From Bacteroidota bacterium (GTDB taxonomy: Bacteria; Bacteroidota; Bacteroidia; B-17B0; Aurantibacillaceae), in NCBI GenBank assembly GCA_030684395.1, contig JAUXTT010000035.1:1-35894 (forward strand): a DNA stretch of 35,894 bases. Reading direction: 5' to 3'. The notes below the pieces were generated by a model. The model was given only the letters and a program-made list of their open reading frames with translations. It made no database searches and was not told the origin of the DNA. The translations under genes and the position numbers were made by a program. Positions 11,686-28,013 of this stretch are shown one piece after another (position 1 is the first letter of the stretch; every line of letters begins with the position of its first letter).

Positions 11686-12351
11686 ATGAAAAGCAAGGTA
11701 AGAATTGCAATTGCAGAAGATCATCCCTTATTCAGGAAAGGTATAACTTCTTTTATAGAAGAATATGAGGAGTACAAAGTAATATGGGAAGCTTCGAATG
11801 GGCAGGAAGTATTGGCGCATTTGAAAACAAATAAGCCTGATGTTTTGTTGCTTGATTTGAGAATGCCTGTTATGGATGGATTTGAGACCATCGATATGAT
11901 CAGAAGGAAAAGAATAGATTGTAAGATAGTTATTTTGACTTCTTATTCAGACGATCATGTAATTTATTCTTGCATTGAAAGAGGTGTCAATGGTTTTTTA
12001 CGAAAGGATCAGGCAGGCGTGGATTTGATTAATGCAGTCAATACCGTTCTGGAAATTGATTATTACTTTGATGAATCATTCGCGAAATCACTGGTAAGGC
12101 AAACATTCAGAAACAAAGAAAACTTAGATCAGAAAAGTGTAAGCCTGTCAAAACGCGAAATCGAAATAATAAAATTAATATGCGCGGAATTTACAAATGC
12201 TGAAATGGCAGATAAATTATTCTTAAGTACCAAAACAATTGAGAGTTACAGAAACAGTTTATTAAAAAAAACAGGCGCCAGAAATACAGCCGGTGTTGTT
12301 ATTTATGCAATTGAAAGAGGCCTGGTGGATTCTTTAAAATTCAGGGACTAA
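11686..12351 (+). CDS. NarL/FixJ-type response regulator (REC + LuxR-type HTH)
   Basis: A DNA-binding response regulator of 221 aa, active as a phosphorylated dimer in the cytoplasm. The receiver domain (about 5-120) has the acidic pair E11-D12, the phospho-acceptor D57 in LLLDLRMP, and the conserved Lys in FLRKDQAG. The C-terminal LuxR/GerE helix-turn-helix (about 152-212) contains LSKREIEIIKLICAEFTNAE and LSTKTIESYRNSLLKKTGA. No histidine kinase is adjacent, so it is an orphan in this window. It lies upstream of the small HTH gene and the repeat-domain/RiPP region. A regulatory link is possible but unproven. Confidence 0.93.
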   Translation: MKSKVRIAIAEDHPLFRKGITSFIEEYEEYKVIWEASNGQEVLAHLKTNKPDVLLLDLRMPVMDGFETIDMIRRKRIDCKIVILTSYSDDHVIYSCIERGVNGFLRKDQAGVDLINAVNTVLEIDYYFDESFAKSLVRQTFRNKENLDQKSVSLSKREIEIIKLICAEFTNAEMADKLFLSTKTIESYRNSLLKKTGARNTAGVVIYAIERGLVDSLKFRD

Positions 12352-12575: not shown

Positions 12576-12806
12576 ATGGACTATCTCACCTATTCGGAAA
12601 AACTGGAGAGCATGCAATATTATATCAAAAGCCGCTCGGCCGTTACTGTTACAGATTTGAGTAATAAACTGGAAGTTTCAAGAAGAACCGTTTTAAGAAT
12701 GGTAGAGAACCTTCGCTTGCAGGGAATAGATCTACAGTATTGTAAAAAGCAAAAAGCTTATAGTATTTCTGCTCCTGAAAAAAATATTTTTCAGAAAAAT
12801 TTTTGA
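12576..12806 (+). CDS. Small HTH_11-type DNA-binding protein
   Basis: A 76-aa protein made almost entirely of a winged helix-turn-helix of the HTH_11/DeoR-BirA kind (about 6-66). Its recognition region is VTDLSNKLEVSRRTVLRMVENLRLQGIDL. It looks like the N-terminal domain of WYL-type regulators without the ligand-binding part. The frame ends with a natural hydrophilic tail rather than a broken domain. Small stand-alone regulators of this kind often control the next gene. Here that is the repeat-domain cluster starting 57 bp downstream on the same strand. Confidence 0.75.
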   Translation: MDYLTYSEKLESMQYYIKSRSAVTVTDLSNKLEVSRRTVLRMVENLRLQGIDLQYCKKQKAYSISAPEKNIFQKNF

Positions 12807-12862: not shown

Positions 12863-13309
12863 ATGCTATACAAAATGGATCAATATATTTCGAACTCGCT
12901 TGAAAAGGTATTCGAAACTGCGCTTGGGCAAAGAGTAAACTACACAGCAAATACAGGTGTCGGAATTATTTCTACTGCAAACACTAATCTTAATGGAACC
13001 GGAACTATAGTTGGTATTATTACCGGAGATCTTTATGGAACATTAATAAAAACAATAACTATTAAAGCAATTGGTAATACCACTCGTGGTATGGTTAGGC
13101 TTTTTACTTATGATAGTGAAGGTGGAACAAAAAGATTAATAATGGAAGTAGATATTCCTGCTGTAATACAGAGTAGTATTGATAAAGCATTTTCTATAAC
13201 CATGGAAACCGATTTTATGTTGGAACCGGCATGGAATATTGGAGCATCAACTGAAAAAGGGGAAAGTTTTATTGTAATAGCAGAAGGGGTCGATACTACC
13301 TTCCCTTAA
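12863..13309 (+). CDS. Single-copy repeat-domain protein (YTANTG family), unknown function
   Basis: A 148-aa protein with a short helical N-terminus (about 1-26) followed by one copy of the about 122-residue beta-rich domain shared with the next two genes. Domain landmarks are YTANTG, STANTNLNGTGT, TLIKTITIKA, GMVRLFTYD, LIMEVDIPA, and a closing NIGASTEKGESFIVIAEG. There is no signal peptide, membrane segment or T9SS tail, so export by a standard route is not visible. A second ATG at 12875 (MDQYIS) is an alternative start. I recall similar sequences in uncharacterised bacterial and phage-contig proteins but cannot name a family. It is the first gene of a same-strand run leading into the RiPP locus. 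Confidence 0.75.
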   Translation: MLYKMDQYISNSLEKVFETALGQRVNYTANTGVGIISTANTNLNGTGTIVGIITGDLYGTLIKTITIKAIGNTTRGMVRLFTYDSEGGTKRLIMEVDIPAVIQSSIDKAFSITMETDFMLEPAWNIGASTEKGESFIVIAEGVDTTFP

Positions 13310-13350
13310 GAAAACTTTATAAGACAAAATTAACTAAATAAAAATAAATT

Positions 13351-14195
13351 ATGGCAGCGGAAACACAGTACACAGCAAATACCGGAATGGTAAAATTGCT
13401 ACAGCAAACACTTCTCTTACAGGTTCAGGTACGGTAGGAACTGATATTTATAATGTTATTACGGGAGGAGCTAATGGGACTCTAATAAAAACGGTGAGTA
13501 TAAAAGCTACAGGAACCGGAGCCAGTAGCACATCTCAAGGCATGGTAAGATTGTTTGTTTATAACGGTTCAAACACAAGGCTTTTGATGGAAATTGATAT
13601 TCCTGCACAAGGGCAGGGATCAACAGATCCCACTTTTGAAACAACGATAGAGTTAAATTATAAATTAAAAGAGAGTTATATTCTTCGGGCAACTACCCAA
13701 ACCAGTGATGATTTTAACATTATTGCTGAGGGGCTTGATTTTGCATATTACGCATCTTCAGTTAGACCAGAAAGTACAAATTACACTGCTAATACAGGGG
13801 TAGGATATGTAAGCGATGCTAACACAGCTTTGGACGGGTCAGGAACAGTGGGAACTGATATATTTACTGTTGTTACAGCAGGAGCCTCTGGCTCTGGATG
13901 GAAGGGCTTATGTATTGATTCTATTACTATTAAAGCGGCAAGCACAGTTATTCATGGTATGATAAGAATTTTTATTCAAAATACCAGTACTGGAGCTTCG
14001 AATACATTTTTGTTTAAAGAAGTTTTCGTGCCATATACTATACCTAGTGCTACATCTAAAAGTTTTGGATATAAATTGATTTTCCCGGACAAATTTCAGC
14101 TACAAGCTGGGTTTAAAATTTTGGCGACTTCGCAGAATGGTTCGGAAAACTATGCTGTTATAGCTGACGCAATGGATTGGAAATATCCGGCTTAA
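13351..14195 (+). pseudogene. Two-domain repeat protein interrupted by a -1 frameshift
   Basis: The reading begins MAAETQYTANTG at 13351, identical in start to the next gene, but hits a stop at 13435-13437. From 13392 another frame carries on perfectly with the family sequence (KIATANTSLTGSG...) to 14195. One extra A in the AAAA run at 13392-13395 (GGTAAAATTGCT) would restore about 281 residues. The restored protein has two copies of the domain (about 7-130 and 140-281), joined by the YYASSVR linker also found in the next gene. The remaining sequence is undamaged. The break is therefore recent, a sequencing slip in a homopolymer, or a switchable tract. Confidence 0.75.
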
Positions 14196-14225
14196 ATAGT
14201 TGTTTAATTATTAATAAAACAAAGC

Positions 14226-15023
14226 ATGGCAGCAGAAACACAATATACAGCAAATACAGGATTGGCAACAGTATCTGTAAAAAACACAAGTTTAAATGGT
14301 AGTGGAACATTAGTTGATATACTATTAGGTGCGGCTAATGGGACACTTATTAAGACTGTTACGGTGAAAGCCCTTTCAACCACCATTTCTCCAGGTATGA
14401 TAAGGCTCTTTGTTTATGACGGAACCAACACACGCCTTCTGGAAGAAATTGAAGTAATACCTGGAATTCAAGCATCTATTAATCCCACCTTTGAGGCAAC
14501 GGTTAATTTGAACTTAAGTTTACAATCGGGTTACTATTTAAGGGCATCGACTGAAGAGAACGAAAGCTTTAATATTATAGTAGAAAGCAGTAACTGGGCT
14601 TATTATGCAAGTTCTGTAAGAGATGATACTACCCAATATAGCGCTGACATGGGTATAGCATCAATATCAACAGCTAACTCTAATTTGGATGGAACAGGTA
14701 CAGTAACAACAATACTTACAGCAGGTTCCTCTGCAACTTATAAGGGATGTAGCATACCTACCATTACAATTAAAGGTACTGTTAATACTACTCCCGGCAT
14801 GGTGAGATTATTTATTGGTGATACAGGAAGTACTAAAAAACTTTTTAAAGAAATTGTCATCCCTTCTATAACGAAAACAGCAACTGATCAGGCTTTTGAA
14901 CACACAATAGTGTTTGAAGATGATTTTGATTTACAGGCAGGGTATAAAATTATTGCATCTACTCAAAATGCAGAGAACTTTAATATTTTGGTTGAAGGTA
15001 AAAATTGGAATTATAAGGCCTAA
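14226..15023 (+). CDS. Two-domain repeat protein (YTANTG family), unknown function
   Basis: An intact 265-aa protein consisting of two tandem copies of the same beta-rich domain (about 7-128 and 140-265) and little else. Each copy runs through Y[TS]A[ND][TM]G, ANT/S-L-x-G-x-GT, ITIKA or VTVKA, GM[IV]RLF, a strand with E[IV]xxP, and ends with an [AS]STxNxExFNI stretch. The domains are linked by WAYYASSVR. The opening MAAETQYTANTG is shared with the frameshifted gene 30 bp upstream, so the two arose by duplication. There is no signal peptide, catalytic motif or cysteine pattern. A structural or binding role is the mildest inference. The RiPP precursor gene follows 60 bp downstream. Confidence 0.8.
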   Translation: MAAETQYTANTGLATVSVKNTSLNGSGTLVDILLGAANGTLIKTVTVKALSTTISPGMIRLFVYDGTNTRLLEEIEVIPGIQASINPTFEATVNLNLSLQSGYYLRASTEENESFNIIVESSNWAYYASSVRDDTTQYSADMGIASISTANSNLDGTGTVTTILTAGSSATYKGCSIPTITIKGTVNTTPGMVRLFIGDTGSTKKLFKEIVIPSITKTATDQAFEHTIVFEDDFDLQAGYKIIASTQNAENFNILVEGKNWNYKA

Positions 15024-15083: not shown

Positions 15084-15296
15084 ATGAAAAAATTAGAAAA
15101 ATTACTCCCACAAACCTTTCTAGAGAATAAGAATGGAAGTTACAACAATATGTCAAAAATAATTTCACACACATCTACTCAAAAGGATATAGCATGGTGG
15201 ACCACAGTCCACACATCTAGTTATGGAGGGGATTACGGACAAGTTCATGATAGAGCCCATACAGCATGGGGAGATGCGCCTCAATGGAATTATTAG
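15084..15296 (+). CDS. Candidate RiPP precursor peptide (grasp-with-spasm locus)
   Basis: A 70-aa peptide directly before the ATP-grasp gene, overlapping it by 13 bp. The first about 35 residues look like a leader (MKKLEKLLPQTFLENKNGSY...). The C-terminal half is rich in Thr, Ser, Asp, His, Gly and Trp (AWWTTVHTSSYGGDYGQVHD then RAHTAWGDAPQWNY). Such content suits ATP-grasp ligases, which join Ser/Thr/Lys side chains to Asp/Glu side chains in graspetides. Potential donors are T40, T41, T44, S45, S46 and T60; acceptors are D50, D56 and D64. There is no cysteine, so thioether chemistry is not available. The ring pattern and cleavage site are not evident. Confidence 0.75.
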   Translation: MKKLEKLLPQTFLENKNGSYNNMSKIISHTSTQKDIAWWTTVHTSSYGGDYGQVHDRAHTAWGDAPQWNY

Positions 15297-16276
15297 AAAA
15301 AAAGGTTCTTATTATTTCAAGTGATATTGACAGAAGTACTTCTGAAGTATTGGAGTGGCTTATTGTCAAAAAACAACCATTTATTAGACTGAATGATAAT
15401 GTTTGCTTTGACCTTGATAATATTGAGATAATGCAAAAGCAAAATAAATTAGTCCTGAAATATAATGGCGAGATTATTTATTTAAAAAACATAAAGTCAT
15501 TTTGGTATAGAAGAGGAAGTATAAGTGTCAGAAACAATATTCCAGACAGCATACCTAATGCAGTCAAAATATACTTAAATGAAGAGTGTAAAGCAATTGA
15601 AGCTTTCATCATATATGAGTTAGATAAGCTAGCAAAAATAAATCATTACGGAAACTCCAATTTAAACAAGCTTTATCAACTCAGTTTGGCCGTTGAATGT
15701 GGATTGAACATACCATACACGGCGATTGCAAATGATTCAAGCACTGTTAAAAAAATTCTTCTTGAACACAAATCAATTGTATCAAAATCAATTCAGGCTA
15801 GTCTGAATTATCAAACGAAATCAAACATGTATTCTTTAATGACAAGCAAATTTGAGAATTGTGATTTAGATACAAGCGCAGCCAATTTTTTTTACACAAA
15901 GTTTCAGCCCCAGATTGTTAAAGACTTTGAACTAAGGATATTTTTTCTAAATAAGAAATTTTATACCATGGCAATTTTTTCACAGAGAAACAAAAAGACT
16001 GAAGTTGATTTTAGAAATTATGATTTTGAAAACCCAAATAGATGCGTTCCTTACAAACTTCCTGTATTTTTAGAAAAAAAACTCCTTAAGTTAATGAATA
16101 AGTTAGATTTATTATCCGGATCTATTGACATGATAGTAAGAGGGAAAGAGTATTATTTTTTAGAAGTAAATCCTGTTGGTCAATTTGGAATGGTATCTTA
16201 TCCTTGTAATTATTATTTAGAAGAGAAAATTGCTGAAATCCTATCAAAAAATGAAAATAAAAAACTTAAAAACTGA
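15284..16276 (+). CDS. gwsG: Grasp-with-spasm ATP-grasp peptide maturase
   Basis: An ATP-dependent ligase expected to install ester or amide cross-links in the adjacent precursor. Numbering from MELLEKKVLI (330 aa), the N-terminal pre-ATP-grasp region has ISSDIDRSTSEVLEWL (11-26) and the family landmark SFWYRRG (72-78). The ATP-grasp core shows KSIQASL (168-174), DFELRIFFL (214-222) and the Mg-ATP motif FLEVNPVGQF (292-301). Size and layout match the GwsG family, relatives of microviridin-type ligases. The start at 15284 is chosen because the upstream in-frame ATG (15266) adds six residues lying inside the precursor coding sequence. It overlaps the precursor (13 bp) and the next small gene (26 bp), indicating one transcript. 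Confidence 0.88.
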   Translation: MELLEKKVLIISSDIDRSTSEVLEWLIVKKQPFIRLNDNVCFDLDNIEIMQKQNKLVLKYNGEIIYLKNIKSFWYRRGSISVRNNIPDSIPNAVKIYLNEECKAIEAFIIYELDKLAKINHYGNSNLNKLYQLSLAVECGLNIPYTAIANDSSTVKKILLEHKSIVSKSIQASLNYQTKSNMYSLMTSKFENCDLDTSAANFFYTKFQPQIVKDFELRIFFLNKKFYTMAIFSQRNKKTEVDFRNYDFENPNRCVPYKLPVFLEKKLLKLMNKLDLLSGSIDMIVRGKEYYFLEVNPVGQFGMVSYPCNYYLEEKIAEILSKNENKKLKN

Positions 16277-16436
16277 AAGCACTCCTGCTAATTTCGTCAA
16301 GATCGAACGTGTTTTAAAAGACGGTATTGTATCGGTTAAATGTGCCCCAGTAAAAAAACTTTGTACAAATGTTGGAATTATCGATACATGTTTTCACCCA
16401 ATTTCTAGGATTCTGGAAGTAAAAAATAGTTTATAG
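16251..16436 (+). CDS. Unrecognised 61-aa protein between gwsG and gwsS
   Basis: A small frame starting MKIKNLKTESTPANF inside the end of gwsG and stopping exactly one codon before the ATG of gwsS (TAG then ATG). This double coupling argues that it is a real gene. The sequence is basic and strand-rich, with three cysteines (CAPVKKLC then IIDTC). It has no signal peptide or membrane segment and is too short for a complete PqqD-like recognition domain. It could be a second precursor, a scaffold for the two maturases, or an immunity peptide; none can be chosen from sequence. The upstream in-frame ATG (16230) is less likely. Confidence 0.6.
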   Translation: MKIKNLKTESTPANFVKIERVLKDGIVSVKCAPVKKLCTNVGIIDTCFHPISRILEVKNSL

Positions 16437-17522
16437 ATGCAGACTGATATACCCTTTAAAATGTTCGAAAATTGTATTTTGGTTAAAGGTATTAAAAGAA
16501 GTACTATTGTTGATCTGGGCAGGAGAAAATACCACATTATACCCAACGATTTGCACGACTTGTTAACTAAATATGATGGAAAATCAATAGAACATATAAT
16601 GCAATTTTATGATATTGAAAATCAAAAAACAATATCCGAGTACTTTAAATTTTTATTCGACAACGAAATTATTTTTCATACTGAAAACCCGAATCACTTC
16701 CCAAAGATAGACTTTTCAAATTGGAAGACACCTTCTTTAGTTTATCAATGTATAATAGACTTGAAGTCAGATTACTCGGTAATCAATGAAGATTTAGTAG
16801 AGAGTTTGGACAATTTGAATTGTAAGTTTTTGCAAATTCGGATATACGGCAATATTAAAACTCAAAGATTACACGATTTGATAAAAAAGTTTGAAAACTC
16901 TTCGATTATAGGAATAGATGTTTACTTAAAATATAAATCTATTGAAGAATCTGAAGCACTGTATGACCTAGCAAAAACATTTCAAAGGGTAAATAATATT
17001 GTTATTTTTGATTCTGACACTAATAAGCAATTATTTACCCACAAAAAACATAATGTTAATATTGCGTACGTAAAACAAAAAATCACTAATTGTTTGAGTT
17101 GTGGCGTTGTTTCACCAGAGTATTTTAGCGTAAACATTCAAGCTTTTACGGAATCTTCTAATTTCAACTCTTGCTTAAATCAAAAAATCAGTATTGATGA
17201 AAATGGTGAAATTAAAAACTGCCCCAGTATGAAGGAAAGTTTTGGGAATATTAAAAATGTTTCTTTAGAAGAGGCTTTAGATAAAGAGGGGTTTAAAAAA
17301 TATTGGAAAATCACGAAAGACAAAATCGAAGGATGTAAAGACTGTGAATTTAGACATATTTGCACAGATTGTAGAGCTTATGTTGAAAATCCAGATGATA
17401 AATATAGTAAACCTCTTAAATGTGGTTATGATCCGCATACAAGCAAATGGGAAGAGTGGAGTACAAATCCTCTTAAACAAAAATCGATTGAGCATTATGG
17501 ACTTCGGCAAATAATAAAATAG
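16437..17522 (+). CDS. gwsS: Grasp-with-spasm SPASM-domain peptide maturase
   Basis: The partner of the ATP-grasp enzyme, 361 aa. The N-terminus (about 5-90) looks like a PqqD-type precursor-recognition fold (CILVKGIKRSTIVDL, RKYHIIPNDLHDLL, FLFDNEIIF). The middle region resembles a radical-SAM barrel, but no CxxxCxxC motif is present; the Cys at 105 and 129 are isolated. The C-terminal SPASM region is well marked: C219-x2-C222, C246, C262 (NCPSM), then C300-x2-C303-x5-C309-x2-C312, and C329, enough for auxiliary Fe-S clusters. Members of this family generally lack the SAM-cluster cysteines as far as I recall, so radical chemistry is doubtful. It follows the 61-aa gene with no gap. Confidence 0.85.
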   Translation: MQTDIPFKMFENCILVKGIKRSTIVDLGRRKYHIIPNDLHDLLTKYDGKSIEHIMQFYDIENQKTISEYFKFLFDNEIIFHTENPNHFPKIDFSNWKTPSLVYQCIIDLKSDYSVINEDLVESLDNLNCKFLQIRIYGNIKTQRLHDLIKKFENSSIIGIDVYLKYKSIEESEALYDLAKTFQRVNNIVIFDSDTNKQLFTHKKHNVNIAYVKQKITNCLSCGVVSPEYFSVNIQAFTESSNFNSCLNQKISIDENGEIKNCPSMKESFGNIKNVSLEEALDKEGFKKYWKITKDKIEGCKDCEFRHICTDCRAYVENPDDKYSKPLKCGYDPHTSKWEEWSTNPLKQKSIEHYGLRQIIK

Positions 17523-17563
17523 TAACTTTACTATTGTTTCTGTTTCTATGATTATTATTTGGC

Positions 17564-18361
17564 ATGTTAAATCTTTGTTTAAAACTGATAATTAGTCCTA
17601 TTAAAACAATACTAGTATTTTCCTTTGTATGTTTTACCTCGTGGGGGTATACTCAAGACAAACCAAAGGAGAACTATGTGTTTATTAAAAAACCCGGACT
17701 CAATAAACCACTTGCTGGGTTGCTTAAGTATATTTTCATTAATGATCAAAAGTACAGGGAAAAATTAGAATCCTATGGGGGAAAATATGGGTATGATTCA
17801 AAAGAGGTAAAAGAGCTTTGGGATACTATTAATAAGCAAGATTCAGTCAATATAGCTCAGGTTACGGATATTATTAATAAATATGGCTGGCTGGGTCCTG
17901 ATGCTATAGGTGAAGAGGGGAGTTCGACTTTATTTTTGGTAATACAACATGCTGACATAAAAACTCAGGAGAAGTATTTGCCTTTGATGGAAGAGGCTGT
18001 CAAAAAAGGTAATGCTTACGCAAGAGATTTGGCTTTATTGGAAGACAGAGTTGCGTTGGCACATGGTAAAAAACAGATCTATGGTAGTCAGGTAGTTCGA
18101 GATTTGAAGACGGGTAAATATATTATTCAACCTATTGAAGACGAAGGAAGTGTTAATAAGAGAAGAGAATCAGTAGGACTTGAACCAATTGAGCAATATG
18201 TAAAACATTGGGGAATTGATTACAAACCCGGAATGAGTAACTTTGAGAATTGTAATAATGATTCACAGAAAAGTGCTAATGTATGGCTTTGGGTATGCAT
18301 AATTGCCTCGGGTGTTTTAATAATTGTTTTTCTCGTCTATAAGTACAGAAGAAGTGTTTAA
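17564..18361 (+). CDS. DUF6624-like membrane-anchored protein
   Basis: A 265-aa exported protein with an N-terminal signal or anchor (about 9-30, ending SWGYTQ) and a C-terminal transmembrane helix (about 240-259) with a basic end (KYRRSV). The middle (about 95-190: YGWLGPDAIGEEGSSTLFLVIQH, then LPLMEEAVKKGNAYARDLALLEDR) matches what I know as DUF6624. This is a domain of unknown function frequent in Bacteroidota. Being 41 bp downstream of gwsS on the same strand, it may belong to the RiPP unit, for example in export, processing or immunity. It has no protease or transporter motif. The gene converges on the exopolysaccharide operon 32 bp away. Confidence 0.7.
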   Translation: MLNLCLKLIISPIKTILVFSFVCFTSWGYTQDKPKENYVFIKKPGLNKPLAGLLKYIFINDQKYREKLESYGGKYGYDSKEVKELWDTINKQDSVNIAQVTDIINKYGWLGPDAIGEEGSSTLFLVIQHADIKTQEKYLPLMEEAVKKGNAYARDLALLEDRVALAHGKKQIYGSQVVRDLKTGKYIIQPIEDEGSVNKRRESVGLEPIEQYVKHWGIDYKPGMSNFENCNNDSQKSANVWLWVCIIASGVLIIVFLVYKYRRSV

Positions 18362-18393: not shown

Positions 18394-19704
18394 TTACAGC
18401 CCCAACTCCTTAGCATGCTTCGACGATTTTGAAGGATTCCAGGGGTCTTCATAGGATCTTTTGAAAAACAATTCATCGATATAAGCTATCGTTCTTACCA
18501 CACGTAAATACAAGCCAAAATAAAACACCATGCATGGAAGATAGGGTAGGAAATACGTTACCGTTTCATTTTTTCGTGTGCGGAACAAAGAGAAGATCGT
18601 GAATTTCAGAAAGTTCATTACCGTATACAATAAAATATTGAAAGGCAAGATAAAGGCCAATTGAGATGTATAGTTTATGGCCATGTCAATTATATACACC
18701 CACCATTTAAAGTTCAGTAGTAAATTATAGGTGATGTTTTCCAGGGAAGAAATAAAGTTTGAAAACTTAAAGGTGGCATTTGGGTAAAACACATCGCGGT
18801 GTTTACGAACACGAAAACGAATAATGGATTTATCCCAGCGCAAACGTTGTTTTACCAGTTTTTTGAAAGTATCCGGAACACTTGTTTGGCAAACAGCCTC
18901 CGATTCAAAAGCAATTTTATAATTTAGTTTCCGGAGTTTAACTGTAATATCACCATCTAATCCGGGGCCAATATCCCAGCCTCCTACACGATCCAATGCT
19001 TCTTTTTTAAATGCTCCGAATGCCCCGGATACAACACGGTAAATTCCTAAATAACTGGTAGTGATTCTTCCTGTTGAAATAGTATCCGCATATTCTATTG
19101 CCTGCAAGGTAGCGCACAAACTGTCTTTGTAATTTCTTACCTGCACATTTCCTCCAACTGCCCCAATTGATTCGTCTAAGTAAAAAGGAATAATAATTTT
19201 TTCAATAGCGTCGTTATCATAACTGCAATCGGCATCTAAATGGATAATTATTTTACCTCTTGAGTAGCGATAACCTAAGTTAGCGGCAGATGCTTTTCCT
19301 CCTCGCACATCATTACGTAAGAACAGGTCGATCAATCCATTTTTCTGTAAACTTTTGCAAATGCGTTCGGTATCATCATCAGAGCCATCATCAATAACAA
19401 TAAATTCAAAATTGGTGTACGACTGTTCTTTCATCGACATTGCCAATTTGTAAATGTGTTTCCCTTCATTTTTTCCGGGAACAATTATGGAAATTAGTGG
19501 ACGATCGATAAACAGTTTTTGACGCGCAACATCATAACGCATTTTCCGTGTTTCTTTTCCAATACGCCAGATAAGTAAGGTAGTTAATTCGAATAAAAAA
19601 AAACGAAGGAACTCGAAGAATACAAAAAACCAGAAGATGCGAACCAGTTTGGATGGTCCAACCGCAGAGATGTACGAAAAGAAATCATCAATTGCATCAG
19701 TCAT
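18394..19704 (-). CDS. Processive family 2 glycosyltransferase (exopolysaccharide synthase)
   Basis: A membrane-embedded polysaccharide synthase of 436 aa, similar in layout to PgaC, hyaluronan or cellulose-type GT2 enzymes. One hydrophobic segment (about 22-42) precedes the GT-A catalytic domain (about 70-300). That domain has VIDDGSDDD, the metal-binding HLDADCS, the acceptor-site region LDGDITVKL and the processivity motif KQRLRWDKS (Q-x2-R-W). Two or more transmembrane helices follow (about 325-410). The polymer cannot be named. It overlaps the upstream gene by 8 bp and is the last gene of a four-gene set with a TackOD1 protein, an HlyD adaptor and a TolC-like channel. Confidence 0.9.
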   Translation of the reverse strand: MTDAIDDFFSYISAVGPSKLVRIFWFFVFFEFLRFFLFELTTLLIWRIGKETRKMRYDVARQKLFIDRPLISIIVPGKNEGKHIYKLAMSMKEQSYTNFEFIVIDDGSDDDTERICKSLQKNGLIDLFLRNDVRGGKASAANLGYRYSRGKIIIHLDADCSYDNDAIEKIIIPFYLDESIGAVGGNVQVRNYKDSLCATLQAIEYADTISTGRITTSYLGIYRVVSGAFGAFKKEALDRVGGWDIGPGLDGDITVKLRKLNYKIAFESEAVCQTSVPDTFKKLVKQRLRWDKSIIRFRVRKHRDVFYPNATFKFSNFISSLENITYNLLLNFKWWVYIIDMAINYTSQLAFILPFNILLYTVMNFLKFTIFSLFRTRKNETVTYFLPYLPCMVFYFGLYLRVVRTIAYIDELFFKRSYEDPWNPSKSSKHAKELGL

Positions 19705-21142
19705 TCTGTTCTGTTAGTGCTTTTGTTAATTCTGCAACCTGTTTTTCAAATACAATATCTTTGTTCAACTCAGCTACTTTGTGATGTAATATCAGTTGAA
19801 ACTTATTAAAGTTGTTGAATACCATTTCCTCCATTTTGTCAGCAACCTTTTGCATCATCATTAGTCCCTCTTCAAGAGTTGCATCATTGATGCAAATAGA
19901 AATGAGCGATGGATTGGAAATGTTGATAAAATCTGCCGGAGTAATATTTTCTCTGATTAATGAAACAAGTTCTGTGATGAATGCCTTTTCTTTTGACTTA
20001 CCCAGTTTACGAAGAAGATCAAAAACATTTTCTAAATGCAACACCGCTATATTTGTACTTAATGCTTTGTTACTCTTTATACGCTCTTGTTCATAGTGCA
20101 TCATGGTATTAAAGGTCTTATAATCTACCGCGCCAAACACATCATCGGTTCCACCATACTCAGAAGTAATAATACCGGATGTGGCAGCATTCCTTCCTTT
20201 TTTTGTAAGACGATATATGTTAATGTTTTTTGAAACTAAATACTGTACATCTGAGTCGGATTTACATTGCAAACAAAGTGCCTTAACAATATAATCCTGA
20301 AAAACTTCATTACAAGTTAAGCAATGATTGATGATAGAAGGTTTATCATAATCAACTCCAATATGACGAAGTGCTTTGTTACACTTTGGGCAACCTAATA
20401 CACTATCTACTTTATTTTTGAAATCAGAAATGGGGCCAATATAACCGCATGGAAAGTGATGCACTAAGTCTTCCGATTTCATGTTTGCCGAATTACAGCT
20501 CGGACAAATTTCTCTATAAGATAAGTGCCCTGCTCCACAAGAGTTACAAAGGTAAACGCGGTCGTGGAAATCAGGCCAGATCAGGTTTTCTTTTTGTGCC
20601 CAATCCAAAACTTCCAGCACCTTTCCTTCTTCAAACGTTTCAAAATTGATGCTTAAAAGGGGAAAGGTAAAACCAATGGCAGAGTGTAAGTCAGGATAAG
20701 GTTTTAATGATCGAAGTTCACGTGTGTACATGTAATTCAGGATCTTCTTCATTACTAAAACTTCAAAGGAAGCGGAAGGGCTATTGTCGATATGCGTTGA
20801 TCGTACAAACAATTCCTGTATATCATTTATTTTTTCGGGAATCTGATCAAAAGAAACAAGTGTCCCGTCGTGCAATTGATCTACGATCGGGTCATTAATG
20901 CTTTTATAATTGATCAGGAAAATAGGTTTAAGATAAAATTCAGAATTGGAATGTGAGCGGAATTTTTTAAGTATGATACGTGTGAAATCAGGATCGTTTG
21001 CTTCTAAAACAATTGCATCGTATCCAACAAGGTGATCTATCTTTAATCCACTGAAACTCTCGAACAGGTAAAACAACTGATTGTCGTAGTTGAGTACGTT
21101 GTTCTGAAATTCTATACGTGATTTATTTGCAGTAGGGTCCAT
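19697..21142 (-). CDS. TackOD1 zinc-binding protein with degenerate GGDEF-like domain
   Basis: A cytoplasmic regulatory protein. Numbering from the longer in-frame start at 21178 (493 aa), the N-terminal about 130 residues look like a degenerate receiver. Then comes a cysteine-rich TackOD1-type output region with pairs C211/C214, C225/C228, lone C244 (HHFPCGYIGP), C263/C266, C286/C289 and C302/C305; RHIGVDYDKP (271-280) is characteristic. The C-terminal about 345-480 has GGDEF-like secondary structure (DVFGAVDYKTFNTMM...), but no GGDEF signature, so cyclase activity is unlikely. It could sense c-di-GMP or only dimerise. The 21142 ATG (MDPTANKS) leaves 4 bp after the HlyD stop; 21178 would overlap by 32 bp. 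It likely regulates the neighbouring synthase. Confidence 0.75.
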   Translation of the reverse strand: MDPTANKSRIEFQNNVLNYDNQLFYLFESFSGLKIDHLVGYDAIVLEANDPDFTRIILKKFRSHSNSEFYLKPIFLINYKSINDPIVDQLHDGTLVSFDQIPEKINDIQELFVRSTHIDNSPSASFEVLVMKKILNYMYTRELRSLKPYPDLHSAIGFTFPLLSINFETFEEGKVLEVLDWAQKENLIWPDFHDRVYLCNSCGAGHLSYREICPSCNSANMKSEDLVHHFPCGYIGPISDFKNKVDSVLGCPKCNKALRHIGVDYDKPSIINHCLTCNEVFQDYIVKALCLQCKSDSDVQYLVSKNINIYRLTKKGRNAATSGIITSEYGGTDDVFGAVDYKTFNTMMHYEQERIKSNKALSTNIAVLHLENVFDLLRKLGKSKEKAFITELVSLIRENITPADFINISNPSLISICINDATLEEGLMMMQKVADKMEEMVFNNFNKFQLILHHKVAELNKDIVFEKQVAELTKALTEQND

Positions 21143-21146
21143 CCGT

Positions 21147-22283
21147 TTATTCGTATTTGAATTTAGAAATGTCGACACTCATTTTATAGAATGTTCTCCA
21201 TTTGCTCATTTCTTCTGCATCCACAGGGTAAATATCTCCTGCAATGCTTCGTGTTGTGGGTTCGTATTTTTTCTGAAACTCCTCGGGTAATGTATAAGTA
21301 GCAATGTAAAAACGTTTCAGGTATCCTAAGCTTGTTGTACCATCAGGAAAGGTGACTTTAAATACATCTCCCACTTTAAAATGCCCTACATCTTCCTGAT
21401 CAAAGAATGCTTTAATAAATGCAGGATGATCTTTATGCATTGTCATTATATCTTCTGACTTCAATGCAGTTTCTGTTGGGTGAATATATATGCGGGTAAT
21501 GATAGCATCCATAGGTGCTTTAAAGAACCTTTCTTCGCTTAATAACTCGTCGCTAAATGTTACGCGCTGGTTTTTCATGTAATCGTTAAGGCTGTTTCCA
21601 CCACCTCCGCCCGCATTCATTTTAAGGTCCTTTACTGATTTGTTTGCTGTATTATCAAAGGGCTTAAGAGTTTTCATTAAACTTCCTAATTCGGCATTTT
21701 CACTTTTTAATTTTAGATTCTCTGTTTTTAATTTCATTATTTCAGTCTGCACATAATCCAATCGTTGTTTTGGGAGCACATCTAAAATAACTTCATTGGT
21801 CAAACGTTTTAATTCGCCTTCATAGTTTTTTATCAGAAGCGAATTTTCATTTGCTTTTACATTATTGATCGCAATAGCTTTTTTAATGTTATATAATTCT
21901 TTCAGCCACCAGTAATCCTGACCTCCTGTGCTTGTTACGCCTCCCAAACTTAGAGATGTAGCACCCGATCCGCTAATGTCCTGATCGAGGTCCAAAACAT
22001 AAGAAAACAGTGTATCGTTTTTACAAACACTATCACCTTCGTGTACATATATATCAATCAAGCGCGCATCATCTGTTAACCTCACTTTTGTGCTTTCTAT
22101 GATTACATGTCCAAAAGCGTGAACCATCACAAATTTATTGAACAAATAATAAACCATGAAAAGAACAAATGCGCATAACAGAATCAGGTAAACCACACGG
22201 TCCCAATTCCTTCGCTTCTTGATCTTCTTTTCGTTGGTGATACGAATGAGCGACTTATTTCTTTGAAAATTTAAACTCTTCAT
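21147..22283 (-). CDS. HlyD-type membrane fusion protein
   Basis: A periplasmic adaptor of 378 aa linking an inner-membrane partner to an outer-membrane channel. It has a basic cytoplasmic start, one transmembrane helix (about 31-50, VVYLILLCAFVLFMVYYLF), a first half-lipoyl strand set (VRLTDDARLIDIYVHEGDSVCKNDTLF), a coiled-coil hairpin (about 130-205, LKTENLKLKSENAELGS), and a closing beta-barrel region (about 245-345, FFKAPMDAIITRIYIHPTETALKSED, VGDVFKVTFPDGT). A GGGGG stretch (about 224-230) lies in the linker. It sits 4 bp after the TolC-fusion gene. With a GT2 synthase in the same operon it resembles the Alg44-type arrangement for polysaccharide export, which is inference. Confidence 0.88.
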   Translation of the reverse strand: MKSLNFQRNKSLIRITNEKKIKKRRNWDRVVYLILLCAFVLFMVYYLFNKFVMVHAFGHVIIESTKVRLTDDARLIDIYVHEGDSVCKNDTLFSYVLDLDQDISGSGATSLSLGGVTSTGGQDYWWLKELYNIKKAIAINNVKANENSLLIKNYEGELKRLTNEVILDVLPKQRLDYVQTEIMKLKTENLKLKSENAELGSLMKTLKPFDNTANKSVKDLKMNAGGGGGNSLNDYMKNQRVTFSDELLSEERFFKAPMDAIITRIYIHPTETALKSEDIMTMHKDHPAFIKAFFDQEDVGHFKVGDVFKVTFPDGTTSLGYLKRFYIATYTLPEEFQKKYEPTTRSIAGDIYPVDAEEMSKWRTFYKMSVDISKFKYE

Positions 22284-22287
22284 TTTC

Positions 22288-24549
22288 TTAATCCTCTTTG
22301 TTCTTTAATTGAATTTCTTTTTTGTCCAATTCAATCAATCCTTCATAATCATGATAGGCAGTGTGCTTTATTGCAAATTTTTTAAAGTGCTCATTCATTT
22401 GTAAACGATTTTCAAAGTCTTTGGTTCTTAATGCAAGCACTACTTTGTCTCCACCCAATTTTATTTCTTCCACTGTTTTTTTATTTATAAAATCTACGCC
22501 AACATTCTCATAAGCCATTAAATACACCTTGTCGCATTTGGCAAATAGTTTTTTCAAAACAGTGTCAGGATAATTAAGCGGAATTGAAACACTTAATCGA
22601 AGATTTTTGTGTTTACAAAAAACAGCAGCCGAATCAATGAGATTCATGTATTTATTGAAATAAGTATCTTTGTTTTCTTTAAAATCATCGAAGGTGTGAG
22701 GCTCCACATCCAAATGTAATCCCTTTACCAGATTCAATGGCAGTTGAGCGGCTAAGCTATCAGAAAATTTTTGGAAGCCACCTTTTACTAAATTGTTATT
22801 TCCGGTCATAACAGAAAAAGAACGGGTATAGTTTTTATTGATGAAAGTATTCAGTAGTTTCAAATATTGTTTATCATTCTTGTATGAAATGATCAATTCA
22901 GTAAAATCATTCAGGTCGCAATAATCGCTGATCATTTCAGGCGGATTATTCACTAGTGTTTTACTCCAGATATATATTGCTTTTACATTCGGGTTACTGA
23001 ATGAAGAATCTTTAACATCTTCTTTGATTGTAACAGGAAATGTAAAGTCAGCTATTTCCGTATTTGGTACTTTTTCTTTAATGTTCAATAATACTTTGTA
23101 CATATCCTGATGAAGATCCAATAGCTCAACCGCATTGCTCCAATAATCATCTAAAATAAATAATGCTGTATTCGGATTGAATTCAATATCACTGAATTCT
23201 TTCTTTACTTTTTCCGTTCGAACCAACTCTGCAAATACATTTCTTTTTTCAACGAGATTGAAATACTTTTTCAGTTTATAACGGTACTCGTAATAATAGT
23301 TGAGTAAAAGATATTCTATTCCCGGTTCTGTTTGTATTTGTTGCTGTTGAAATTCAAGTTGTTTGTTTACCAGATATAACTCCTTTTTTTCTTTCCCTGT
23401 AAAAGCAAGTGGCATGGATAAATTTAAACCAAATGACATAAAACTTCTGTTGGCAATGTTTTGAGAATATACATCATAATAATTGTAACGCGCATAAGCC
23501 TTTAATCCAACCTCTCTTAAATACCTTGATTCGTATTTTGCACTCTCAAGTAAGGAAGCAGGAAGTGCAGTGTCTGAAGCCTGAGAAACATAATTGACAC
23601 GTTTCAATAATTTCTCGAAATCAATATCGAGTAGCGGAGTCTCAATCGTATCGTTTGGTTTGATACTTAGTTTGGATGCAATCTCTGAAAAGGAACTGTA
23701 CAATTCAAACTGACCGTTGATGTCGGTTTTGTTTTGAATGGCTTTTAAGTAATCGTCTTTGCTTAGGTGTTTATATGCCCAAAGTTTTTCGATCACTTCC
23801 ATTTGTTTTGTATTCAGCTCTTTTCTTTTTTGCAGAACAACAATTTTTCGTTTGTTGAAATTAGAAACAACCTGCTCACTTGTAATAAGAAAAGACCTTG
23901 AACTTCTTTGTGCAAAATTGGAACGTTTGATATAATCTACCTCGTTCTTTAAAGTTTTTATTTTAGACCTGTTGTCATATAAACCGCCTTTCAATAAGTC
24001 CCAATCAAGGCCAAATTGAGCGCGTTGTCTAAATACAATTACATCTTCCGGATCTACAAAAGGTGCGCTGGTATTTCGTTGATAAGCTGCAGTCAGGTTT
24101 AGCCCCAAATCTTTGCTGTAAATTTTTTGTTGAAGGAAATTACGCTTTAATAAAAGTTCTGTTCTTCTGTTGGCTAAACTTATTTCTGAATTTGCTTTGA
24201 GATTAGTTTTCTTTTTGGATTGATCGTTGAGCTGATCGTTGAAAGTTTCAGTATTGTACTTATCCCACAAAGAAGAAAGTTCTTTTATATAACCGGAAAT
24301 AGTAGAATCAATTTTTGGATTGGGTTGAGATAAAAGAACACCACTACTAAACTGAATTAGCGAGAGTATAAATAAGATATGCACTATTTTAGTCAAGGTT
24401 TCCTTCAAAAGGGTAGTAAAAGTACTAATAATTAACCGATTAGAGAAATAAACGGGTAAAACGGATGTTTTGTCGGGTAAAGTCAAATATTTACCGCTGT
24501 ATGTATTGTTTCCGCTTATTTCTGAACATTGACTGTCAAGTAGTTTCAT
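22288..24549 (-). CDS. TolC-like outer-membrane channel fused to a TIM-barrel glycosidase-like domain
   Basis: A 753-aa two-part protein. Residues about 75-505 are a TolC/outer-membrane efflux protein: long helices with coiled-coil character and beta segments such as LGLNLTAAYQRN, AQFGLDWDLLKGGLYDNRSK and FMSFGLNLSMPLAF. Residues about 520-745 form a separate alpha/beta domain with alternating strands (VKAIYIWSK, KGLHLDVEPHTFDDF, LRLSVSIPLN, KVYLMAYEN, KVVLALRTK), like a GH18-type or related TIM barrel. Acidic residues are placed as in D-x-E catalytic motifs (D-V-E at about 614-616). TolC proteins are normally about 430 aa, so this is a true fusion. The first about 50 residues before the signal-like VHILFILSLIQFSSG look non-coding; a TTG at 24396 after AAGGA may be the real start. 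Confidence 0.8.
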   Translation of the reverse strand: MKLLDSQCSEISGNNTYSGKYLTLPDKTSVLPVYFSNRLIISTFTTLLKETLTKIVHILFILSLIQFSSGVLLSQPNPKIDSTISGYIKELSSLWDKYNTETFNDQLNDQSKKKTNLKANSEISLANRRTELLLKRNFLQQKIYSKDLGLNLTAAYQRNTSAPFVDPEDVIVFRQRAQFGLDWDLLKGGLYDNRSKIKTLKNEVDYIKRSNFAQRSSRSFLITSEQVVSNFNKRKIVVLQKRKELNTKQMEVIEKLWAYKHLSKDDYLKAIQNKTDINGQFELYSSFSEIASKLSIKPNDTIETPLLDIDFEKLLKRVNYVSQASDTALPASLLESAKYESRYLREVGLKAYARYNYYDVYSQNIANRSFMSFGLNLSMPLAFTGKEKKELYLVNKQLEFQQQQIQTEPGIEYLLLNYYYEYRYKLKKYFNLVEKRNVFAELVRTEKVKKEFSDIEFNPNTALFILDDYWSNAVELLDLHQDMYKVLLNIKEKVPNTEIADFTFPVTIKEDVKDSSFSNPNVKAIYIWSKTLVNNPPEMISDYCDLNDFTELIISYKNDKQYLKLLNTFINKNYTRSFSVMTGNNNLVKGGFQKFSDSLAAQLPLNLVKGLHLDVEPHTFDDFKENKDTYFNKYMNLIDSAAVFCKHKNLRLSVSIPLNYPDTVLKKLFAKCDKVYLMAYENVGVDFINKKTVEEIKLGGDKVVLALRTKDFENRLQMNEHFKKFAIKHTAYHDYEGLIELDKKEIQLKNKED

Positions 24550-26746: not shown

Positions 26747-26773
26747 GGTCGGAAGAAATTCCGGCCATTTTTT
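26747..26773 (+). terminator. Inward-reading terminator at the left IS end
   Basis: GGTCGGAA - GAAA - TTCCGGCC (one G-U pair) followed by ATTTTTT, read on the plus strand into the element. It overlaps the terminal inverted repeat and the end of the transposase gene. It should stop transcription arriving from the T9SS gene on the left. Confidence 0.75.
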
Positions 26774-28013
26774 ATGTTTTAAATAAAAGTTGTGGATTTC
26801 CGCCACATTGCTCTACAATCATGGCAATGGATAAATTTCTAACTTCCATGAAGAGCCTTCTTTTGGCAGTTTTATAACCTATGCCGTTCCGTTTTTTGTA
26901 AATAAGCACAAGCATTGCGACGATCAACGTCATGTACAATAATACGGTAATTCCATTTTTGTTTAAAGATACCAGGTGACTAACATTAAGTTCTTGCTTT
27001 ATAAATCTAAAGAACACTTCAATGTCCCAGCGTCTTCTATAGGCTTGGGCTATTTCCTTTGAAGAGAGATCAAAATCGTTAGTTAGGAACCAATATTGTT
27101 TATCTTTTTCTGCTTTGCTTTGAGCAATAATCAATCGGAACGGAGTATCAACCAATTCTTCTTTGTAATGCTGATTGCCTCTTTTGTTTTTTATCGGCGT
27201 TCCTGTGTAGAGCTGGACTTTACAATCTTTAATTAGCGTTGATTCACCTAAATCCAAACTCTGATTTTTTTTCATTAAGGATTTTAACTCAATATATTTT
27301 CGGTTTTCCTTTGCCCTACAAACGAATGTAACGGAATCTTTAGTGAAGGCTTTCATGGTTCTTGTGGATTGAAAGCCTCGGTCTATTACATAAATATTTT
27401 TATGATCACTTTCCTTCTTTACATGATTCATGATAACTTCGGGCAACGCTATGTCTTCGCTGGTATAACGCGCTTCGGTAAACACACTGGAAGCGCAAGG
27501 TAAAACACCATCAAATGCAATGCTGTATTTAACCGATTTCTTACCGCTTTTATTATCCATTCCTTCCAAAAGCTTACCTACCGACTCACTGATCGTTGTA
27601 CTATCAACACGTATCAAATTATATTTTGCTTTTTCAGAGCAACAATAAGAAATGGAAAATTGCTCATAGATACAATCATAAATCTGTTTGAAGTAATCGG
27701 AATCTATTTTTGAGAGCCTCTCTGAAAGAGAACTTCTGCGGACCCGTTCTTCTTTGTCAAGATTGAAGAGGGTTTTGAAAACAGGATCGTTAAACGTATC
27801 CTCCAGAGTGCGCTGACTTAGCTTTTCATTCTCTAAGATGCCGTACATTAAAAGATGGAACATTTTTTTACCATGCAAAACCTTTGCATAGTGATCTACT
27901 TTTGAGGTTGAGGATAAACCAGAAAATAACACATCCGGGATTACTTCCAATAACTGGTTAGCTCCAATTTTATGATCTCTGAATACTGACATAAGACTAA
28001 TTCTTACCAGCAA
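26772..28013 (-). CDS. IS4-family DDE transposase
   Basis: A cut-and-paste transposase of 413 aa with an RNase H-like catalytic core. The DDE residues are D137 (RVDSTTI), D211 (VIDRGFQ) and E332. The last lies in the IS4 signature Y325-x2-R328-x3-E332-x6-K339 (AYRRRWDIEVFFRFIK), which is perfect here. A large beta insertion lies between the second D and E, as is usual in IS4. An N-terminal helical region (about 1-125) likely binds the inverted repeats. There is no frameshift or internal stop. An alternative ATG at 27992 (MSVFRDHK) would remove seven residues. Confidence 0.95.
   Translation of the reverse strand: MLVRISLMSVFRDHKIGANQLLEVIPDVLFSGLSSTSKVDHYAKVLHGKKMFHLLMYGILENEKLSQRTLEDTFNDPVFKTLFNLDKEERVRRSSLSERLSKIDSDYFKQIYDCIYEQFSISYCCSEKAKYNLIRVDSTTISESVGKLLEGMDNKSGKKSVKYSIAFDGVLPCASSVFTEARYTSEDIALPEVIMNHVKKESDHKNIYVIDRGFQSTRTMKAFTKDSVTFVCRAKENRKYIELKSLMKKNQSLDLGESTLIKDCKVQLYTGTPIKNKRGNQHYKEELVDTPFRLIIAQSKAEKDKQYWFLTNDFDLSSKEIAQAYRRRWDIEVFFRFIKQELNVSHLVSLNKNGITVLLYMTLIVAMLVLIYKKRNGIGYKTAKRRLFMEVRNLSIAMIVEQCGGNPQLLFKT

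What the first reader, a model, noticed from the sequence alone, without database searches (positions are those of the whole stretch)
15084..18361. Compact grasp-with-spasm RiPP locus with a Cys-free, Thr/Ser/Asp-rich precursor
Precursor, ATP-grasp ligase (SFWYRRG, LEVNPVGQF), a small protein and a SPASM maturase overlap or abut, and a membrane protein follows 41 bp later. The system type is known by bioinformatics, but its products are hardly characterised. This precursor's tail (TTVHTSSYGGDYG, RAHTAWGD) gives several possible ester-ring patterns. No transporter or protease is nearby, so export is unexplained.
Basis: partly seen in the sequence, partly recalled or inferred. Interest (0 to 1): 0.75.

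Follow-up and report, generated by a model that had tools for sequence, protein, structure and literature searches.

The report
Peptide-ring gene cluster with phage-like partners
This bacterium carries a known kind of gene cluster that ties small peptides into rings, but its supposed radical enzyme lacks the radical-making site, and it sits behind three phage-related genes that in related bacteria also sit in front of a different class of peptide-modifying genes.

Summary
The ATP-grasp and SPASM proteins pass the curated cut-offs of TIGR04192 and TIGR04193, so this is a grasp-with-spasm (gws) graspetide locus. Three points change the reading. (1) The 'SPASM maturase' is not a radical SAM enzyme by sequence: none of 108 distinct GwsS proteins has a CX3CX2C motif (13 of 15 control proteins do), while 96 of 108 keep all eight conserved SPASM-region cysteines. 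A predicted structure resembles RiPP radical SAM/SPASM enzymes behind a peptide-clamp-like domain. I read it as a partner protein for the ligase. (2) The small protein belongs to the known LPL family, and the membrane protein is DUF6624. (3) The unit extends upstream: three tandem 'TANTG' proteins (12863-15023), distantly related to phage proteins, end just before the precursor. All nine TANTG loci found in this order have a small ORF directly behind them: five with gws genes, two with lanthipeptide LanC/LanB genes, one beside a thioredoxin-like gene, one cut by a contig end. The genome has no C39 peptidase match, which fits a precursor without a GG leader; export remains unexplained. The precursor is an orphan and its rings are untested.

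The parts
12863..13309 (+). TANTG1: one beta-repeat domain behind a short N-terminal segment
   Evidence: 92 bits to TANTG3, 144 bits to the TANTG profile; first member of the triplet
13352..14195 (+). TANTG2: two TANTG domains; the reading frame shifts near 13390 in this assembly (the ORF list starts it at GTG 13494)
14226..15023 (+). TANTG3: two TANTG domains; 60 nt lie between it and the precursor
   Evidence: phage relatives
15084..15296 (+). Predicted precursor peptide, 70 aa, Cys-free, no canonical GG leader; orphan sequence
15266..16276 (+). GwsG, ATP-grasp peptide ligase (probable start at ATG 15284)
   Evidence: TIGR04192 303.5 bits, cut-off 230; conserved K174, D248/R250, D288, E300, N302
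16251..16436 (+). LPL-family small protein (61 aa); in-frame stop directly before the GwsS start
   Evidence: a small ORF in this position at 106 of 109 GwsS genes examined; same-family relative in L134 shares CFHPIS; family named in PMC8939145
16437..17522 (+). GwsS: SPASM protein without CX3CX2C
   Evidence: TIGR04193 361.7 bits, cut-off 175; motif counts; AF2 model and fold comparison
16449..16706 (+). Region of GwsS for the RRE-like (peptide clamp) N-terminal domain
   Evidence: model residues 66-155 align to the leading domains of TruD, a heterocyclase and MccB, Z 6.8-7.1
17100..17423 (+). SPASM cysteine region, C222 to C329 of GwsS
   Evidence: all eight Cys in 96 of 108 GwsS
17564..18361 (+). 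DUF6624 protein with predicted helices at residues 2-28 and 228-264 (read as membrane anchors)
   Evidence: PF20329 84.4 bits, cut-off 27; AF2 model pLDDT 88.5

Best explanation
This is a grasp-with-spasm graspetide locus of a PCAT-less subtype. Proposed mechanism: GwsG uses ATP to activate Asp/Glu side chains of the 70-aa peptide and joins them to Ser/Thr (or Lys) side chains as ester or amide rings. GwsS does no radical chemistry; it is an RRE-like domain plus degenerate radical-SAM barrel plus Fe-S SPASM scaffold that binds the precursor and/or GwsG and is needed for ring formation, with the LPL protein as a small co-factor of that complex. The DUF6624 protein acts at the membrane (handling or immunity). 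The TANTG triplet directly upstream belongs to the same unit and serves the finished peptide (carrier, display or release) rather than its chemistry, because the same kind of triplet stands before a different chemistry (LanC/LanB) in relatives. Shown here: gene order, family membership, loss of the CX3CX2C motif, conserved SPASM cysteines, fold resemblance, TANTG-small ORF linkage. Inferred: ring chemistry, partner role, roles of LPL, DUF6624 and TANTG.
For: Family scores. GwsG present in all 95 sequences examined (L001-L015, L031-L109 and the window; L001 repeats the window; the weak-hit loci L016-L030 were left out), with ATP-grasp residues conserved in 91-101 of 101 proteins. 0 of 108 distinct GwsS have CX3CX2C anywhere (alignment), against 13 of 15 SPASM-type proteins found below the cut-off by the same profile. 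SPASM cysteines: 96 of 108 keep all eight, 1 keeps seven, 10 keep four, 1 keeps none while still next to gwsG, an LPL gene, a GG precursor and a PCAT (L014). The ten four-Cys members keep positions 300, 303, 309 and 329 and lose 222, 246, 262 and 312. Model of GwsS: top fold matches PqqE Z 11.9, SuiB 11.8, anSME 10.9, a sactipeptide enzyme (5wgg) 10.3, TigE 10.2; N-terminal part matches TruD and MccB clamps. Precedent: MirC, an RRE-like partner protein required by a graspetide synthetase (PMC13097080). 33 of 96 GG-type candidate cores have no Cys (the set includes the window peptide by accident of its internal GG), so Cys-based thioethers cannot be the general product. TANTG: in 9 of 9 TANTG loci a small ORF starts 13-61 nt behind the last TANTG gene; 5 gws (L138 and L139 are near-identical), 2 LanC/LanB. 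No TANTG match in the other 394 phylum genomes sampled nor in the DNA held for the 79 named gws loci. No Peptidase_C39 in the genome or in the TANTG loci.
Against: No experiment exists. The LPL part of the model has pLDDT below 50, so no complex is shown. Plain Foldseek gave no match at E <= 0.001. The RRE matches have Z about 7, a value the tool says can reflect a common arrangement. Only 5 of the 14 gws regions read in this order have TANTG; the other nine lack it. L161 has TANTG and a small ORF but no recognised RiPP enzyme, only a thioredoxin-like protein. TANTG versus PCAT exclusion is not significant (0 of 12 distinct loci with both, Fisher p 0.21), and G410, which has a TANTG gws locus, has C39 genes elsewhere. 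TANTG2 is frame-shifted in this assembly. The precursor is an orphan. A sheath gene is in only 2 of 8 TANTG genomes, so TANTG is not tied to a contractile particle.
Confidence: 0.6

Rival explanations
1. GwsS is a working radical enzyme that adds a second modification (C-C, C-O or thioether), using an unusual site or supplying auxiliary clusters to another radical SAM protein encoded elsewhere.
For: PMC8939145 describes it as a SPASM radical SAM enzyme able to form such bonds; eight cysteines are conserved in 96 of 108; 63 of 96 GG-type candidate cores contain Cys.
Against: 0 of 108 with CX3CX2C; the only other well conserved Cys columns (13, 25, 129) are scattered; ten members lost four cysteines together and one lost all; the window precursor has no Cys.
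Confidence: 0.1
2. The TANTG triplet is a passenger: a phage-derived gene set at an integration hot spot where RiPP cassettes happen to land.
For: The TANTG domain occurs in phages, in Pam2 directly beside an annotated tail fiber gene; the genes are confined to few genomes (8 of 87 in the order; own genome only among 395 of the phylum); nine of 14 gws regions read in the order lack them; TANTG2 is frame-shifted here.
Against: In 9 of 9 loci a small ORF starts 13-61 nt behind the last TANTG gene on the same strand; four of those nine peptides, two gws and two lanthipeptide, share the start MKKKEK[LI]K (two of the four are from one genome, G415), expected of a shared partner rather than of landing by chance; three tandem genes in seven of nine loci (the near-identical L138 and L139 have one).
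Confidence: 0.3
3. The 15084 ORF is not the precursor, or the locus is decaying: the true substrate lies elsewhere or was lost.
For: No convincing homologue in 295 genomes of the class; leader profile score only 6.4 bits against 25.6 for a typical GG precursor; no PCAT.
Against: Position and overlap with gwsG match those of precursors in relatives; MKKLEK start; full-length GwsG, LPL and GwsS; other TANTG loci of the family have equally unusual peptides in the same place.
Confidence: 0.15
4. LPL supplies a leader motif in trans to GwsG, replacing the leader motif of other graspetide precursors.
For: PMC8939145 notes that the LPL motif resembles the leader motif and that branch 5 precursors lack it; a small ORF sits between gwsG and gwsS at 106 of 109 GwsS genes.
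Against: The window protein has TPANF instead of LPLTF; AF2 gives it no confident fold.
Confidence: 0.25

Closest known systems
Grasp-with-spasm graspetides (branch 5 of PMC8939145; probably group 14 of PMC13097080)
   Same: GwsG, LPL small protein, GwsS, DUF6624-type protein (probably their cluster 23, not tested), diverse precursors
   Different: Here no GG leader, no PCAT, and a TANTG triplet upstream; GwsS argued not to be a radical enzyme
Rosaritide MirB/MirC (PMC13097080)
   Same: Graspetide synthetase with a dedicated partner protein whose N-domain weakly resembles an RRE
   Different: MirC is SurA-like; GwsS is a degenerate radical-SAM/SPASM protein
RiPP radical SAM/SPASM maturases (PqqE, SuiB, TigE and the sactipeptide enzyme of 5wgg)
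   Same: Fold of the model; clamp then barrel then SPASM order; SPASM cysteines
   Different: CX3CX2C absent in all 108 GwsS examined
Class I lanthipeptide loci of the same family (L160, L162)
   Same: TANTG triplet upstream, precursor with MKKKEKLK start, no C39 gene in the stretch read
   Different: LanC and LanB instead of GwsG, LPL and GwsS
Phage proteins with a TANTG domain (Pseudanabaena phage Pam2; IMG/VR L165-L167)
   Same: TANTG domain, 38-40% identity; in Pam2 beside an annotated tail fiber gene
   Different: Single-domain ORFs among virion genes; no RiPP genes recognised in the three regions read

Membership tests
Grasp-with-spasm system | ATP-grasp maturase over the TIGR04192 cut-off | tested here: met
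   303.5 bits, cut-off 230
Grasp-with-spasm system | SPASM protein over the TIGR04193 cut-off | tested here: met
   361.7 bits, cut-off 175
Grasp-with-spasm system | Small LPL protein between gwsG and gwsS | tested here: met
   Position met; the literal LPL motif is TPANF here
Grasp-with-spasm system | Typical but not defining: precursor with GG-type leader | tested here: not met
   ORF in place, but leader profile 6.4 bits and no leader GG; the TANTG-linked gws peptides of L137, L139 and L140 score 2.7, 2.0 and -1.0 against 25.6 for L134
Radical SAM enzymes | CX3CX2C ligands of the SAM cluster | tested here: not met
   0 of 108 GwsS including the window's; control 13 of 15
SPASM domain proteins | SPASM domain model and cysteine pattern | tested here: met
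   PF13186 28.8 bits, cut-off 21.5; TIGR04085 31.3, cut-off 27; eight Cys
RRE-containing RiPP proteins | N-terminal winged-helix peptide clamp | tested here: inconclusive
   Model matches TruD, heterocyclase and MccB clamps at Z 6.8-7.1; binding untested
Graspetides | Ester or amide rings between side chains (-18 Da each) | not testable with these tools
   needs expression and mass spectrometry
DUF6624 (PF20329) | Over the Pfam gathering score | tested here: met
   84.4 bits, cut-off 27
Phage tail-fibre proteins | Homology to virion proteins and role in a particle | tested here: inconclusive
   38-40% identity to phage proteins, one of them beside an annotated tail fiber gene; no PDB match of the profile, no Pfam match at its cut-off; role untested

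The most novel reading that the evidence does not exclude
The TANTG triplet is a class-independent RiPP chassis: a phage-derived protein set that carries, displays or releases a peptide whose identity and chemistry can be swapped (graspetide, lanthipeptide, perhaps a disulfide peptide), replacing the usual GG-leader and PCAT export. In the window it is paired with a graspetide synthetase that depends on a radical-free SPASM partner.
Probability: 0.3. Interest if true: 0.87.

Novelty: new variant of a known kind. Interest (0 to 1): 0.62.

Why it matters
The gws branch is a large uncharacterised graspetide group (190 loci in PMC8939145), and that paper assigns its SPASM protein radical chemistry. 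If it is a radical-free partner, experiments should look for -18 Da rings and a GwsG-GwsS-LPL complex instead of thioethers, and reconstitution without GwsS should fail. The TANTG link would point to an undescribed way for bacteria to handle RiPPs without the usual exporter, and gives a simple handle for finding more such loci.

Tried and rejected
A guessed NCBIfam accession was the wrong family and told nothing. The eye-catching resemblance of the window tail (YGGDYG...HDR) to a Flavobacterium precursor family (DYGYD...HDRTN) failed: 258 of the 994 rows reported, all shuffled copies, scored above the window. Window precursor against 281 candidate ORFs: nothing significant; against 295 class genomes: hits other than itself had E 0.0014 or worse, the best ones inside very long unrelated frames. 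Longer GwsS ORFs without a separate small ORF looked like natural LPL-GwsS fusions, but three-frame translation showed an LPL-like frame out of register in L094, L098 and L106, less clearly in L060 and L085, so I took them for start-codon artefacts. The DUF6624 model found no PDB fold. My iterated DUF6624 profile is broader than Pfam's: only 14 of 42 labelled proteins reach PF20329 at E 0.01, so the 42-of-64 co-occurrence is for the wider set. LPL packing on GwsS could not be modelled. A profile search of PDB sequences with GwsS gave only two weak unrelated rows, and with TANTG none. The promoter and terminator scan gave no excess over shuffles. PF04984 sheath test of a contractile particle: 2 of 8 TANTG genomes, not the own one. 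A P..F[LIVM] motif in the window leader is shared by none of the other 95 GG-type candidates; I drew no conclusion. PMC13003496 was seen as outline and abstract only and not used. I could not name the organism.
Full report
Observation. The ATP-grasp protein passes the TIGR04192 cut-off (303.5 against 230 bits) and the SPASM protein the TIGR04193 cut-off (361.7 against 175). The membrane protein is DUF6624 (PF20329, 84.4 bits, cut-off 27). The precursor ORF has no family hit. The genome has one TIGR04193 match. TIGR04193 is over its cut-off in 12 of 395 sampled genomes of the phylum and in 10 of 87 of the order. The named relatives (524 confirmed stretches, best 80 kept, 79 loci) carry names such as Flavobacterium, Chryseobacterium, Chitinophagales and Saprospiraceae, with one Phycisphaerales MAG, so I infer that the window is from Bacteroidota.

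Relatives. GwsG lies in all 95 sequences examined (L001-L015, L031-L109 and the window; L001 repeats the window; L016-L030, weak SPASM-only hits, were left out). Across 101 distinct GwsG proteins K174, D248, D288, N302 and G305 (window ORF numbering) are in 101, E300 in 100 and R250 in 98; the literal DFR is in 57 and D-[FYSVI]-R in 91. GwsG should therefore be an active ligase. A small ORF lies between gwsG and gwsS at 106 of the 109 GwsS genes (over 300 aa) that have a GwsG within 400 nt. Of the three without a candidate in that scan (L065, L085, L140), L065 shows one in a three-frame translation. Loose patterns for the C-terminal motif fit 80 of the 106, and an LP-type motif anywhere in the ORF fits 75 (no shuffle control). 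[quoted passage not shown] The window copy reads TPANF where others read LPLTF, but its relative in L134 shares the CFHPIS end.

GwsS. PMC8939145 (section 7 whole, section 6 part 1 of 3, and passages) calls it a SPASM radical SAM enzyme that could make C-C, C-O or thioether bonds. PMC13097080 (parts 1 to 4 of 6 read) says that all group 14 graspetides co-occur with a SPASM protein; that group 14 equals this system is my inference. NCBIfam's own name for TIGR04193, 'SPASM domain peptide maturase', does not say radical SAM. None of 108 distinct GwsS proteins longer than 300 aa contains CX3CX2C. Of 15 other SPASM-type proteins that the same profile found below its cut-off, 13 do; the two misses may be start-site artefacts. 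The strongly conserved cysteines are at window positions 222, 246, 262, 300, 303, 309, 312 and 329 (96 to 107 of 108). 96 proteins have all eight, one has seven, ten have four and one has none. The ten keep 300, 303, 309 and 329 and lose 222, 246, 262 and 312, which is what loss of one of two auxiliary clusters would look like (ligand assignment from recall of SPASM enzymes, not tested). The cysteine-less one (L014) still sits with gwsG, an LPL gene, a GG-type precursor and a PCAT.

GwsS model. I folded LPL and GwsS as one chain by reading the in-frame TAG between them as Gln, with 69 rows. The GwsS part is confident (mean pLDDT of the whole 85.8), the LPL part is not (below 50). VIA-align ranks PqqE (Z 11.9, 217 residues), BtrN 11.9, SuiB 11.8, anSME 10.9, the sactipeptide enzyme 5wgg 10.3 (278 residues) and TigE 10.2 (301 residues, model 67-396) at the top. 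Model residues 66-155 align to the leading domains of TruD, a heterocyclase and MccB at Z 6.8 to 7.1. Plain Foldseek had no match at E 0.001. I read this as RRE-like domain, degenerate radical-SAM barrel and SPASM. The closest working precedent is MirC, an RRE-like partner protein without which the graspetide synthetase MirB did nothing in co-expression (PMC13097080).

Precursors. 96 GG-type candidate ORFs were collected by pattern upstream of gwsG genes; the set includes the window peptide (because of its internal GG) and L137, and some may be chance ORFs. 33 of the 96 have no Cys behind the GG, so thioether chemistry cannot be general. The window peptide matches no other precursor (295 class genomes) and its leader scores 6.4 bits against 25.6 for a typical one, resting on MKKLEK alone. 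Ring patterns cannot be inferred by comparison.

Export and the upstream genes. No Peptidase_C39 match exists in the own genome; the control rang in 8 of 14 genomes. Among 64 loci with at least 6 kb on both sides, a DUF6624-type gene lies within 5 kb on the same strand in 42 and a PCAT lies in the DNA held for 31 (22 both, 13 neither). The wider DUF6624 set is only partly covered by Pfam: 14 of 42. Directly upstream of the window precursor lie three tandem genes that I call TANTG after a repeated motif. Searching the order with the third gave 8 of 87 genomes and nine loci. Reading each: five are followed by gws genes (window, L137, L138, L139, L140; L138 and L139 are near-identical); two by LanC and LanB genes (L160, L162; PF05147, PF04738, PF14028); one by a Cys-rich ORF, a lipoprotein-like ORF and a thioredoxin-like protein but no recognised RiPP enzyme (L161); one contig ends (L163, same genus as the window). 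Seven of the nine have three TANTG genes; L138 and L139 have one. In all nine a small ORF begins 13 to 61 nt behind the last base of the last TANTG gene; in L161 its start is a TTG, and in L160 the longest form starts at a TTG before that point, the MKKKEKLK methionine lying 36 nt behind it.

Shared peptide start. Four of the nine peptides start MKKKEK[LI]K: two in gws loci (L137, L140) and two in lanthipeptide loci (L160, L162); L140 and L162 are from one genome. In the GG-type set only one of 96 does, and that one is L137. L160, L162 and L163 weakly match the class I lanthipeptide leader NF038153, below its cut-off (E 0.0016 to 0.025). In a tree of joined TANTG2+3 from the seven triplet loci the gws and lanthipeptide loci do not separate: L137 (gws) pairs with L160 (lan), support 0.97. 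The window and L163 are 80% identical over TANTG2+3, yet their peptides are unrelated by eye. For scale, LanB genes occur in 9 of 87 genomes of the order, 10 places, two of them the TANTG loci, and TANTG precedes 5 of the 14 gws regions that I read in the order.

What TANTG is. No NCBIfam or Pfam match reached its cut-off and no PDB sequence matched the profile. Beyond this order it was found in none of the other 394 phylum genomes sampled and in none of the DNA held for the 79 named gws loci. Phage relatives at 38 to 40% identity exist in Pseudanabaena phage Pam2, where the gene lies beside an annotated tail fiber gene, and in three IMG/VR contigs, of which two were read and look like virion gene regions by eye. 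TANTG proteins show no obvious signal peptide (my reading). They are not tied to a contractile particle: a sheath gene is in 2 of 8 TANTG genomes. No C39 match lies in the TANTG loci read, but the exclusion against PCAT is not significant in this order (0 of 12 distinct loci with both, table counted by hand, p 0.21). L145 was counted as without PCAT although a C39 gene lies just outside the stretch taken, and G410 has C39 genes on another contig.

Conclusion. The locus is a true gws graspetide locus. Its SPASM protein most likely works as a radical-free partner with an RRE-like domain, and its natural unit includes the TANTG genes. The TANTG role (carrier, display, release) is inference; hitchhiking at a hot spot is the main rival. 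Literature searches: 'grasp-with-spasm' 0 papers, graspetide 37, DUF6624 one, TIGR04193 one, ATP-grasp with SPASM, precursor peptide and Bacteroidetes one, SPASM domain with lacks and auxiliary cluster 0, lanthipeptide with tail fiber and Bacteroidetes one unrelated review by its listing, graspetide with SPASM three, omega-ester and related terms three. Of these I read parts of PMC8939145 and PMC13097080 only; the others were seen in listings, PMC13003496 as outline. In what I read there is no statement that GwsS lacks the radical motif and nothing on TANTG-like genes; the name TANTG is mine and was not searched. Supplements were not read.

Noticed in passing
L034, L040, L044, L046, L054, L056, L060, L068, L072, L082, L091 (GG-type precursors upstream of gwsG): 17 of 96 GG-type candidate cores contain a DxNxDG-like segment that resembles a calcium-binding EF-hand or dockerin loop (no shuffle control); possible acceptor residues or real metal sites.
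   Followed up: partly
window 13352-14195: TANTG2 starts with ATG 13352 (MAAETQYTANTG) but the reading frame shifts near 13390; assembly error or decay.
   Followed up: partly
window 11686-12351 and 12576-12806: LuxR-type response regulator and a small HTH_11 protein upstream of the TANTG genes; L161 and, by eye, L137 also have response regulators near the triplet.
   Followed up: no
GwsS family: L012, L013, L015, L081, L088, L142-L146: Ten GwsS proteins lack the same four cysteines, as if one auxiliary cluster was dropped as a unit; L014 lacks all eight.
   Followed up: partly
L135 (G437:C10): Two complete gws G-S pairs and the remains of a third stand in tandem within about 8 kb.
   Followed up: no
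L160 and L162, behind the LanB genes: A JmjC-type protein follows LanB in L160 and an S41 peptidase follows it in L162.
   Followed up: no
window 18394-24549, - strand: Glycosyltransferase 2 (PF00535), a TackOD1 protein, and two further proteins without Pfam hits that look like a membrane-fusion and an outer-membrane-channel protein by eye; probably a polysaccharide system, not assigned to the peptide.
   Followed up: partly
window 26772-28013, - strand: DDE transposase (PF01609), a possible edge of variable DNA.
   Followed up: no
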